From Bacteroidia bacterium (GTDB lineage Bacteria; Bacteroidota; Bacteroidia; Bacteroidales; Prolixibacteraceae): 48,826 bases of DNA. A program made the position numbers and the translations under genes. Below, piece after piece: positions 6,207-30,522 of the stretch. The notes under the pieces are model-generated. The model was not told the origin of the DNA. It made no database searches and worked only from the letters and a program-made list of their open reading frames with translations. The stretch spans positions 1 to 48,826 of the forward strand of contig JAPLDR010000105.1 in the NCBI GenBank assembly GCA_026391655.1, given 5' to 3'. Position 1 is the stretch's first letter. Each line of letters starts with the position of its first letter.

Positions 6207-6288
6207 TCCGTTTATTTCTCAGTTGTGCAAATAGCAAAATATAAATCCGTAACTGATTGAATATCAATTACGGTTTCTCATTATTTGT

Positions 6289-6368
6289 GGGCTGTACTGG
6301 ATTCGAACCAGTGACCCCTACCCTGTCATCCGTCGGTTGACGGACTAAACCAACTGAGCTAACAGCCT
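6289..6368 (-). pseudogene. tRNA-Val pseudogene with a palindrome in place of part of the anticodon arm
   Basis: Both ends match the intact tRNA-Val at 6647-6721: the 3' half with T-arm, the 11 bases around the GAC anticodon, and the 5' half with D-arm. The 10 bases that would form the 5' side of the anticodon stem and part of the D-stem are replaced by a 16-bp palindrome, TCCGTCGGTTGACGGA (6329-6344, plus strand). The anticodon stem cannot form, and the first acceptor pair is A-C. A normal tRNA finder may still report a low-scoring tRNA here. Confidence 0.8.
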
Positions 6369-6376
6369 ATTCTGTT

Positions 6377-6631
6377 TTATTTATTTCTATTGTTGATGAT
6401 TTCCCAAATAAAAGATCTCCCTCGGGAGGTTTTTAGCTGCTTCTCGCGTTTCATTGCATCTGACTTGGTCGTATATTCCTCTGAATAAAAGATTTCCCAC
6501 GGTTGATATTGAGCTGTCCAACCTGTATTTCTTGAATCATTGTGTATCAGAAGACGATTTTGTAAATCACCGGAAAATCCAATATAGATTTTATTGAACC
6601 GAATGGAATATAAAACGTATGTGTAATACAT
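6377..6631 (-). CDS. small GIY-YIG endonuclease-domain protein
   Basis: 84 residues covering a single GIY-YIG domain. MYYTYVLYSIRFNKIYIGFS gives the YVLYS...IYIG form of the motif, followed by DLQNRLLIHN with the conserved Arg and His, and EYTTKSDAMKREKQLK with the conserved Glu and the basic end of the UvrC/UPF0213-like domain. Family members cut or bind DNA, but the host role of these short Bacteroidota copies is unclear. The gene begins 15 bases after the 3' end of tRNA-Val and ends 8 bases before the tRNA-Val pseudogene on the same strand, so it was probably inserted into a tandem tRNA array and shares its transcript. Confidence 0.85.
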   Translation of the reverse strand: MYYTYVLYSIRFNKIYIGFSGDLQNRLLIHNDSRNTGWTAQYQPWEIFYSEEYTTKSDAMKREKQLKTSRGRSFIWEIINNRNK

Positions 6632-6646
6632 TTCATTTTTAAGAAG

Positions 6647-6721
6647 TGGGCTGTACTGGATTCGAACCAGTGACCCCTACCCTGTCAAGGTAATGCTCTA
6701 AACCAACTGAGCTAACAGCCC
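6647..6721 (-). tRNA. tRNA-Val (GAC)
   Basis: The minus strand starts GGGCTGTTAGCTCAGTTGG, the anticodon stem TTACC/GGTAG encloses loop TTGACAG with anticodon GAC, the T-arm carries GGTTCGAATCC, and the 3' end ACAGCCC pairs with the 5' GGGCTGT. All four arms form. CCA is not encoded. It is the only intact member of what looks like a former tandem array. Confidence 0.93.
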
Positions 6722-6933
6722 TTCTATTTTATGTTTTAATATCAAAAAGAACCATCCGCCAGCTGGCGGACTACCCTGTCATCCGTCAGTTGACGGACTA
6801 AACCAACTGATCCGTCAGCTGACGGACCTTCCATTTTATGTTTTAATATCAAAAAGAACCATCCGCCAGCTGGCGGACTACCCTGTCATCCGTCGGTTGA
6901 CGGACTAAACCAACTGATCCGTCAACAGATGGA
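6720..6933 (-). repeat. two tandem 107-bp degenerate tRNA-Val units
   Basis: Copies at 6720-6826 and 6827-6933 are nearly identical. Each has the array spacer (TTTTATGTTTTAATATC and flanks) followed by fragments of tRNA-Val: CTACCCTGTCA (anticodon loop side) and CTAAACCAACTGA (D-arm), plus-strand reading. The remaining tRNA parts (acceptor/T-arm, 5' anticodon stem, 5' acceptor) are each replaced by a 16-bp palindrome. The 107-bp period equals one tRNA gene plus spacer, so these are former tRNA genes in a tandem array read from the promoter at 6952. Confidence 0.85.
6755..6933. repeat. family of 16-bp palindromes, consensus TCCGYCA-NN-TGRCGGA
   Basis: Copies lie at 6755-6770 and 6862-6877 (TCCGCCAGCTGGCGGA), 6782-6797 (TCCGTCAGTTGACGGA), 6811-6826 (TCCGTCAGCTGACGGA), 6889-6904 (TCCGTCGGTTGACGGA) and 6918-6933 (TCCGTCAACAGATGGA, decayed), plus one inside the pseudo-tRNA at 6329-6344. 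Every copy stands where a tRNA segment should be. I saw no further copies elsewhere in the window. The sequences look like a short interspersed palindrome family that may occur across the genome. Confidence 0.85.
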
Positions 6934-6951
6934 CCTAAAATCTCAGTGTGC

Positions 6952-6959
6952 AAAGATAA
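6952..6959 (-). promoter_or_regulatory. -7 box of the tRNA-Val array promoter
   Basis: The minus strand reads TATCTTTG, matching TAnnTTTG, with a weak -33 (TTG at 6980-6978) about 18 bp upstream. It lies just before the first degenerate unit, so one transcript would run through both degenerate copies, tRNA-Val, the GIY-YIG gene and the pseudo-tRNA. Confidence 0.6.
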
Positions 6960-29409: not shown

Positions 29410-30339
29410 CTAAAGGGATACACTGATAATATTCTCCTTTGTGAGGAACTCCTCCCCGCTCCAGCAGTAAGCTGACAATTGTTCGGACCCAACCACGCAG
29501 CTATCGATGCAACAAATATTTGACTGAACAATTACAGCACCCTGGCTCAGACAATAGTGTCCCATAAAAACAGGAGGTTGGTCTGATCCGTAAGGTTCAA
29601 ACGAAGGGGCAATCTGAATTGGGACAGTATAATCGGGTAATATAAACTTATTTCCAAACGAAAGTTCACGAAAGGTCTTATCCTGAGGCGATTCCCACCA
29701 ATTCATCCGAAACAACTTTCTGCTCATTCCTTTAGTACATTTAAGAATAAGATCCTGAGGACAACGGTATTCAAGCCCTTTGAGCATTCTATAGATGATT
29801 GCAGCTACAGGATGTTGCATTTCATGAATCGTTCTCAAAAAATCTTTCTTCAATATACCCTCAGGGATAAAGCTCCTGAGATAATTGATATCATTATCGT
29901 TCCAGTAAGCATGAACAATCCTGATATCGCCCAGATCGATAAAAAAAGGCAACGTACGAAACCATTTCAAATGGTCGCGCCACTCGGGATCAAATCCTTT
30001 AAAAGCAGTAAGCGTACTTTGAATCTGGTTTCTGTTTCCGGCGATGTGACGCGAAAGATACATTCCAGCCGAGTCCTTAATATGGTATAATACAGCACTA
30101 TATTCGTGATTTCCGAGTATAGTTAGGGCATAACCCGCCTCTGTCATCTGCCGGACGATCTGAATAGTCTCCCTGATTTCGGGCCCACGGTTAATAAAAT
30201 CACCAATAAAAATAGCTTTGCGTTCGGGATGTCGCCATGTTCCATTCGTTTTCGCATACCCCATCGTCTTTAAAAGTTTCTTTAAAAGGGAAGCATAACC
30301 ATGAACATCACCTATTATATCATATTGCAAAGGTATCAT
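29410..30339 (-). CDS. calcineurin-like metallophosphoesterase (PrpE/ApaH-like)
   Basis: 309 residues. IIGDVHGYASLLKKLLK (about 8-24), AIFIGDFINRGPEIRETI and ILGNHEYSAVLY are the three metal-ligand blocks of PPP-family phosphatases, in the form GDVHG / GDxxNRGP / GNHE. RIVHAYWND carries a later His, and VFMGHYCLS is the closing GH block. The closest relatives are bis(5'-nucleosyl)-tetraphosphatase or protein phosphatases of the PrpE type. The C-terminal region is longer than in the minimal enzyme. Substrate is unresolved. It is convergent with guaA, with 36 bases between stops. Confidence 0.85.
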   Translation of the reverse strand: MIPLQYDIIGDVHGYASLLKKLLKTMGYAKTNGTWRHPERKAIFIGDFINRGPEIRETIQIVRQMTEAGYALTILGNHEYSAVLYHIKDSAGMYLSRHIAGNRNQIQSTLTAFKGFDPEWRDHLKWFRTLPFFIDLGDIRIVHAYWNDNDINYLRSFIPEGILKKDFLRTIHEMQHPVAAIIYRMLKGLEYRCPQDLILKCTKGMSRKLFRMNWWESPQDKTFRELSFGNKFILPDYTVPIQIAPSFEPYGSDQPPVFMGHYCLSQGAVIVQSNICCIDSCVVGSEQLSAYCWSGEEFLTKENIISVSL

Positions 30340-30370
30340 CTGTGAATGATTTGATTTTTAATGGTCAGAT

Positions 30371-30431
30371 GGAATAGCCATGATAATTTATTTTCATTAT
30401 CGGGTCGTGATTTCTCAATCATGGCTATTTC
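30371..30431. repeat. 13-14 bp inverted repeat with a 33-base loop
   Basis: GGAATAGCCATGAT at 30371-30384 is mirrored by ATCATGGCTATTTC at 30418-30431 (13 of 14 pairs). It lies upstream of the leftward phosphatase start (30339). No T-run follows on either side, so it is not a plain terminator; an operator or RNA structure is possible. Confidence 0.5.
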
Positions 30432-30522
30432 ATAGACTTCAAAATTAAAAATATTTAGTAAACAAAACCGCAGTCTTGGTGGAGAAATGAAATTTCTAAA
30501 AGATTATTCCCTGGTTACAAAA

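What the first reader, a model, noticed from the sequence alone, without database searches (positions are those of the whole stretch)
6289..6933. tRNA-Val array rewritten by 16-bp palindromes at matching places in three copies
Seven copies of TCCGYCA-NN-TGRCGGA stand exactly where parts of tRNA-Val should be. In the two 107-bp units three segments each are replaced (acceptor/T-arm side, 5' anticodon-stem side, 5' acceptor side), leaving only CTACCCTGTCA and CTAAACCAACTGA. In the 6289 copy only the 10-base anticodon-side segment is replaced, so that copy looks like an earlier stage of the same process. The array period (107 bp) and the promoter at 6952 are kept. Plain insertion would leave the replaced bases nearby; here they are gone, so the palindromes substitute rather than insert. 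The resulting RNA would be a string of three short hairpins joined by tRNA fragments. I know of no named element that does this.
Basis: partly seen in the sequence, partly recalled or inferred. Interest (0 to 1): 0.85.

Follow-up and report, generated by a model that had tools for sequence, protein, structure and literature searches.

The report
Palindrome-ended tRNA–nuclease cassette splitting tRNA-Val
A small mobile-looking cassette, made of a spare valine tRNA gene and a nuclease gene with 16-base palindromes at its ends, sits inside the valine tRNA gene of some Bacteroidales bacteria, cutting the old gene in two while supplying a replacement.

Summary
The layout [tRNA 5' piece:palindrome] - intact tRNA-Val - GIY-YIG - [palindrome:tRNA 3' piece] recurs; 26 of 140 family genomes carry the junction. 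Sister genomes hold the empty site: in two genomes of another genus the flanks align base-precisely to an uninterrupted tRNA-Val, and a 732-bp palindrome-ended cassette stands in place of exactly 10 bp (AGCATTACCT). Its tRNA is of another type than the split host halves. Relatives of the nuclease lie behind Asn, Lys, Val-TAC, Met, Thr, Leu, Asp and Glu tRNA genes too, and the displaced tRNA copy there is usually patched with a perfect hairpin. I read these as homing-and-rescue cassettes invading tRNA genes: the structure is shown, nuclease-driven homing is inferred. The palindrome is wider still: 33 exact copies in this genome, and the tree suggests it replaced an RNase P RNA hairpin three times in the genus. 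Closest known: phage SegB.

The parts
6951..6958 (-). promoter-like TATCTTTG (TAnnTTTG type) ahead of the first tRNA piece
   Evidence: read by eye; consensus recalled; not tested
6843..6933 (-). outer left tRNA-Val piece: decayed palindrome (6918-6933), TCAGTTGGTTTAG, palindrome (6889-6904, site ii, outer border of the cassette by comparison), TGACAGGGTAG, palindrome (6862-6877), TGGTTC and AT-rich spacer
6736..6826 (-). second left tRNA-Val piece, 107 bp from the first, palindromes at 6811-6826, 6782-6797, 6755-6770
6646..6721 (-). intact tRNA-Val(GAC)
   Evidence: ARAGORN
6377..6631 (-). GIY-YIG nuclease gene, 84 aa
   Evidence: ORF; PF01541 56.5 bits, cut-off 22.6
6287..6368 (-). right tRNA-Val piece with palindrome at 6329-6344 in place of the 10-nt segment, 3' end kept

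Best explanation
The region is a tRNA-Val(GAC) gene split by a small mobile cassette. The cassette runs from palindrome to palindrome and carries a complete tRNA-Val plus a GIY-YIG nuclease gene. It stands in place of 10 bp of the host gene (positions 25-34, D-arm/anticodon-stem side), leaving the host 5' half on one side and the 3' half on the other; the carried tRNA supplies the lost function. Shown: the recurring architecture and, in two relatives, the base-precise empty site. For the window itself the same reading rests on the shared architecture. Inferred: the nuclease cuts the empty tRNA gene and the cassette is copied in by break repair (homing with built-in rescue); repeated cutting and recombination made the tandem pieces, as SegB does in phage T6. 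The palindromes come from a pool of dispersed hairpins that also replace hairpins in other structured RNAs; in the split halves they probably destroy the nuclease site and/or keep the wreckage from mispairing with the intact tRNA.
For: One grammar at the tRNA-Val locus of many genomes: [t1-58:PAL]n - intact tRNA - (GIY-YIG - t6-76:PAL)n; 31 of 31 left and 16 of 17 right pieces carry a TCCG..CGGA palindrome, and each of the 38 loci with an intact copy has exactly one. Junction in 26 of 140 family genomes, 7 of 23 genera, some on contigs beyond 0.6-4.1 Mb. Empty site: flanks of G452 and G456 (genus g25) reach position 24 on the left and resume at position 35 on the right of uninterrupted tRNA-Val genes of sisters; 6 sister loci align on both sides over more than 500 bp and have AGCATTACCT between. 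The host type GAGGCAT..ATGCCTC is uninterrupted in 11 of 37 genomes of that genus; no nuclease match in these 11 loci. The carried tRNA of G447 (genus g4) equals those of G464 and G466 (genus g25) over 76 nt, while G020 of g4 has another type. Nuclease residues R26, H30, E63 conserved in 46-47 of 48; dN/dS 0.13-0.18 in the 3 of 105 usable pairs. 29 of 67 loci of nuclease relatives follow a tRNA gene of nine kinds, 21 of the 29 with a partial copy of that tRNA after the nuclease gene.
Against: No cutting or movement was observed. The window's intact tRNA keeps the native 10-nt segment, so immunity of the cassette's own tRNA is unexplained. The window's pieces and intact tRNA are of one type, and no empty site was aligned for the window itself. 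Acceptor pairing is only moderate support: outer left pairs with outer right 7/7, 6/7, 7/7 and 5/5 in G456, G452, G457, G470 against 4, 5, 3 and 3 with the central tRNA, but the central 5' strand pairs with the outer right nearly as well, 6/7, 6/7, 6/7 and 4/5, wobble counted. Several loci with pieces lack the nuclease gene. Palindrome number and nuclease number do not go together within the genus (rho -0.08). The G457 left border is not clean.
Confidence: 0.72

Rival explanations
1. The palindrome is an independent mobile hairpin that entered tandem tRNA-Val duplicates; the nuclease gene is a passenger.
For: 33 exact copies elsewhere and here; copies in repeats and RNAs of many kinds; three separate gains in RNase P RNA suggested by the tree; genomes with palindrome but no nuclease match (6 of 41) and the reverse (8 of 41).
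Against: Base-precise empty site with a palindrome at both cassette ends; the outer halves match the sister's uninterrupted tRNA, not the central one; nuclease relatives elsewhere are flanked by tRNA pieces patched with other hairpins.
Confidence: 0.15
2. The hairpins are there because selection favours self-folding patches that insulate the intact tRNA from its broken copies. This can be true together with the cassette reading; it concerns the palindrome's role.
For: Predicted cloverleaf pairing of the intact tRNA in 19 leader transcripts: 0.63 with the real palindrome, 0.42 with the native segment, 0.54 with shuffled letters; real above native in 16 of 19, above shuffled in 15 of 19. Different hairpins stand at corresponding places in other tRNAs.
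Against: Identical 16-mers in unrelated contexts need a copying process. In 3 of 19 the native segment does as well or better (L172, L173, L192); the loci are related, so the p values (0.0006, 0.0014) are optimistic; even with the palindrome pairing stays below the tRNA alone (0.81). The native 3' acceptor strand is kept in most right pieces.
Confidence: 0.35
3. Only segmental amplification by a resident tRNA-cutting nuclease (SegB-like), without insertion of a foreign cassette.
For: Tandem left pieces and tandem nuclease plus piece units; 14 of 31 left pieces end at GGTTC in the T loop by reading (two script positives, L180 and L181, dropped, the two window units added); 33 of 38 intact tRNAs contain the SegB motif RAWTSGAAC on the other strand.
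Against: The empty site and the differing type of the central tRNA.
Confidence: 0.15
4. Assembly artefact.
For: The window's genome is a draft of 149 contigs.
Against: Same junction in 26 of 140 genomes, some deep inside Mb-scale contigs.
Confidence: 0.02

Closest known systems
SegB and other free-standing GIY-YIG homing endonucleases of T4-like phages
   Same: GIY-YIG nuclease beside tRNA genes; SegB cuts within tRNA genes and drives tandem amplification of a tRNA plus truncated segB (PMC13096335: abstract, sections 9, 10 and passages read; PMC2988022: passages read)
   Different: Bacterial chromosomes; the nuclease is about 84 aa; the element splits a tRNA gene, carries a replacement and has palindromes at its ends; no cutting shown here. 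Sequence kinship to SegB itself was not tested
Integrative elements that use tRNA genes as attachment sites (recalled)
   Same: Entry into a tRNA gene with the function kept
   Different: Whole tRNA carried, split on the anticodon 5' side, palindromes at both ends, and no integrase-sized gene fits in the 732-bp cassette
Group I introns and inteins with homing nucleases (recalled)
   Same: Nuclease in an essential gene kept functional
   Different: Here an uninterrupted second tRNA replaces the broken one; no splicing is needed
Small mobile palindromes: Rickettsia palindromic elements, cyanobacterial small dispersed repeats, mitochondrial double-hairpin elements, REPs (recalled; REP paper PMC3733652 seen only in listings)
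   Same: Short dispersed hairpins in RNA genes and intergenic repeats
   Different: 16 bp, usually replacing existing sequence, and serving as ends of a tRNA-nuclease cassette

Membership tests
Free-standing GIY-YIG homing endonuclease element | GIY-YIG catalytic residues | tested here: met
   PF01541 over cut-off; R26 46/48, H30 47/48, E63 47/48; the Y/G motif counts (47-48 of 48) are partly by construction because ORFs were picked by those motifs
Free-standing GIY-YIG homing endonuclease element | Alleles with and without the nuclease gene at one site | tested here: met
   Empty sites at the same locus in sister genomes
Free-standing GIY-YIG homing endonuclease element | Cuts the empty allele and spreads by break repair | not testable with these tools
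   Needs the bench
SegB family | Sequence kinship with SegB | not tested
   No comparison made; nearest solved chains by sequence are UPF0213 proteins, weak (E 0.01 and 0.08)
REP/RAYT palindrome | Tie to a Y1 transposase | tested here: inconclusive
   Copy number v Y1 number: rho 0.42 (p 0.006) over 41 genomes, -0.02 within the genus of 18; no palindrome in 5 stretches around Y1 genes of the own genome
Small mobile palindrome (RPE/SDR type) | Dispersed in many copies | tested here: met
   33 exact copies
Small mobile palindrome (RPE/SDR type) | Plain insertion without loss of target (recalled) | tested here: not met
   10 bp lost at tRNA positions 25-34; an 18-nt RNase P hairpin exchanged for 16 nt; but one near-plain insertion in a tRNA copy of L106

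The most novel reading that the evidence does not exclude
A natural homing-and-rescue drive on tRNA genes: nuclease cassettes with palindromic ends that break a tRNA gene in bacterial chromosomes and carry a replacement tRNA, passing between Bacteroidales genera and working on at least six kinds of tRNA gene, with the broken halves patched by interchangeable hairpins drawn from a dispersed pool.
Probability: 0.5. Interest if true: 0.92.

Novelty: new variant of a known kind. Interest (0 to 1): 0.82.

Why it matters
Homing elements usually keep their target gene alive by splicing or by sitting beside it. Here an essential type of gene is broken and replaced, the design used on purpose in synthetic cleave-and-rescue gene drives (recalled). 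It would explain a class of tRNA pseudo-copies beside small GIY-YIG genes, give a route by which tRNA genes are swapped between species, and make testable how short hairpins come to replace parts of structured RNAs such as RNase P RNA.

Tried and rejected
Rfam scan of 20 palindrome loci of the own genome: 4 weak hits, none over its gathering score. A second palindrome, TCCCGAT-N0to6-ATCGGGA, has only 4 exact places in the genome. NCBIfam gave no family for the nuclease. Y1 transposases as movers of the palindrome: a weak tie over 41 genomes, none within the genus. The first folding test used wrong cloverleaf coordinates and is discarded; one search corrects it and leaves out L036, which had no palindrome at site ii. 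The first empty-site script found nothing because of a wrong spacing; one search corrects it. Plasmid search: 26 records, in the 20 listed the match lies in the intact tRNA stretch. The group II intron reading of L076/L078 rests on recalled features. L022, L044 and L103 were dropped before the counts as duplicates of L189, L169 and L179. Paper searches whose listings did not show this arrangement; most subscription journals are not held.

Full report
WHAT IS THERE. Seven palindromes lie at 6329-6933 (four exact, two with one mismatch but perfect arms, one decayed), against 0.30 matches expected in the whole window. The genome has 33 exact copies, the reversed control none; 23 of 41 genomes of the relatives set, own included, have at least one. 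On the minus strand the order is: a promoter-like TATCTTTG (by eye), two tRNA-Val pieces 107 bp apart, the intact tRNA-Val(GAC) 6721-6646, a GIY-YIG gene 6631-6377, and a tRNA-Val copy 6368-6287 with one palindrome.

THE SAME LOCUS IN RELATIVES. The neighbouring permease brought in 56 loci. Of 41 scanned, 13 hold a tRNA-Val(GAC); four of the 13 (L022, L036, L037, L044) have palindrome-bearing pieces ahead of it, and L019 has pieces without an intact copy in the stretch held. A pattern search for the junction (2 mismatches allowed) found 6 of 393 genomes of the order, in four families; with 1 mismatch allowed, 26 of 140 genomes of the family, 7 of 23 genera. Annotation with a tRNA profile and the nuclease gives one grammar: [t1-58:PAL]n - intact tRNA - (GIY-YIG - t6-76:PAL)n; not every locus has all parts, and several have pieces but no nuclease gene. 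After dropping three duplicates, 38 of 41 loci have one intact copy each (intact is defined as palindrome-free); all 31 left pieces and 16 of 17 right pieces carry a palindrome; the exception, L021, shows a truncated one by eye.

EMPTY SITE. In G456, G457 and G470 the outer left acceptor strand pairs fully with the outer right one (7/7, 7/7, 5/5) and less with the central tRNA (4, 3, 3); G452 is weak (6 v 5). The central 5' strand, however, pairs nearly as well with the outer right one (6/7, 6/7, 4/5; wobble counted), so pairing alone is moderate support. Stronger: 11 of 37 genomes of that genus hold the outer type, GAGGCAT..ATGCCTC, as one uninterrupted gene. Ten of the eleven show no other tRNA piece in the stretch held; G448 (L269) has a left piece of a third type with a palindrome, and L275 has one palindrome-like match 160 bp downstream. 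The left flank plus positions 1-24 of G452 align with G477 at 95.8% up to base 1521; the right flank resumes at base 1532, position 35, at 88.8%. Between lie 10 bp, AGCATTACCT. G456 gives the same borders. Six sister loci (L271, L274, L276-L279) align on both sides over more than 500 bp; for the others one side is short. No nuclease match was found in the eleven loci. In both genomes the cassette from palindrome to palindrome is 732 bp (790-1521 in L174, 1130-1861 in L176). G457 gives a less clean left border, its left half holding a further hairpin. No such alignment was made for the window's own cassette.

TRANSFER. The carried tRNA of G447 (genus g4) is identical over 76 nt to those of G464 and G466 (genus g25); G020 of g4 has another type, and the right piece of G447 ends like the G020 tRNA. 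This suggests transfer, though tRNAs are short and conserved.

OTHER tRNAs. The window's nuclease has matches in 25 of 41 genomes. Of 67 loci held (with L143; L204 and L224 overlap; 8 others hold under 250 bp upstream), 29 have a tRNA gene within 400 bp upstream on the same strand: Asn 8, Val-TAC 7, Val-GAC 6, Lys 2, Met 2, Thr, Leu, Asp, Glu 1 each. Rough yardstick: 40 palindrome loci, 123,957 bases, held one tRNA. Of the 29, 21 have a partial copy of that tRNA after the nuclease gene at E up to 0.05; in 4 of the other 8 the contig ends inside the nuclease gene. Reading by eye, 16 of the 20 distinct copies clearly have the anticodon and/or T arm replaced by a perfect hairpin, mostly TCCCG..CGGGA; two (L235, L239) are weaker and two (L199, L244) show none, though L199 has a truncated palindrome. 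L201 shows a tRNA-Met piece patched 3' of the anticodon. One patched copy, at tRNA-Val(TAC), is in the window's own genome (L143).

PALINDROMES ELSEWHERE. The palindrome also sits in repeats and structured RNAs. In RNase P RNA it takes the place of a hairpin (P12 by recall): AACCG-TCCGTCAGCTGACGGA-TAAGG against AACCG-TCCCGATGAAAATCGGGA-TAAGG in sisters. Five of the 14 same-genus sequences compared have it, at three places of the tree; the trio node has support 0.999, the nodes placing G000 and G005 0.64 and 0.88. In a repeated element of the own genome TCCGTCAACTGACGGA and TCCCGATGCATCGGGA exchange at one place. Replacement seems the rule, with exceptions such as a near-plain insertion in L106.

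WHAT THE HAIRPINS MAY DO. In 19 leader-plus-tRNA transcripts the predicted cloverleaf pairing is 0.63 with the real palindrome, 0.42 with the native segment, 0.54 with shuffled letters and 0.81 for the tRNA alone; real beats native in 16 of 19, not in L172, L173 and L192. The loci are related, so the p values are optimistic. Destruction of the nuclease site is the alternative and is untested; the intact tRNA of the window still has that segment.

NUCLEASE AND PRECEDENT. R26, H30 and E63 are conserved in 46-47 of 48 proteins; the other motif counts are partly by construction of the filter. dN/dS is 0.13-0.18 for 3 usable of 105 pairs. SegB (PMC13096335: abstract, sections 9 and 10, passages) cuts within tRNA genes, prefers RAWTSGAAC and drives tandem amplification of a tRNA plus truncated segB segment. 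That this motif is the T-loop complement is my own reading; 33 of 38 intact tRNAs contain it. It fits the T-loop end of many left pieces, not the 10-bp border, so the cutting site of this nuclease is open.

VERDICT. A palindrome-ended tRNA plus GIY-YIG cassette splitting a tRNA gene is shown by comparison in relatives and inferred for the window from the same architecture. Homing and the role of the palindromes are inferred. The listings of nine searches of an open-access library did not show it. Odds were lowered slightly on checking (0.75 planned, 0.72 now) because of the wobble control and the lack of an aligned empty site for the window itself.

Noticed in passing
L204/L224 (G026 contig 3): Tandem array of tRNA-Val(TAC) copies with an anticodon arm TTCCGTCTTAAAACGGAA and two GIY-YIG genes: nearly whole tRNA-like units without a normal anticodon.
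   Followed up: partly
L143 (own genome, contig 130, around 196288-196533): A second tRNA plus GIY-YIG cassette in the same genome, at tRNA-Val(TAC), with the displaced copy's anticodon arm replaced by TCCCGACTTTACGTCGGGA.
   Followed up: partly
L122, L129, L133, L134, L135 (rnpB): The palindrome takes the place of a native hairpin in RNase P RNA, apparently three times in one genus; G016 has two rnpB contigs with different palindrome centres.
   Followed up: yes
L076 (own genome, contig 89): Repeated elements that look like group II introns (recalled) carry the palindrome at several places; one stem near the 3' end, TCCGTCAGCTAATTACTGGCGGA, resembles the palindrome with a 7-nt insert and could be a source.
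   Followed up: no
window 30336-30433 and L062-L065, L067, L074, L083: A family of intergenic repeats whose loop is either an AT-rich hairpin or the palindrome.
   Followed up: partly
L036 5691-5761: A palindrome seems to have replaced part of an older palindrome inside a tRNA piece.
   Followed up: no
L177 1462-1500: A different hairpin, TGCCTGCCGTCAGGCA, sits in the D-loop region of the left tRNA piece.
   Followed up: no
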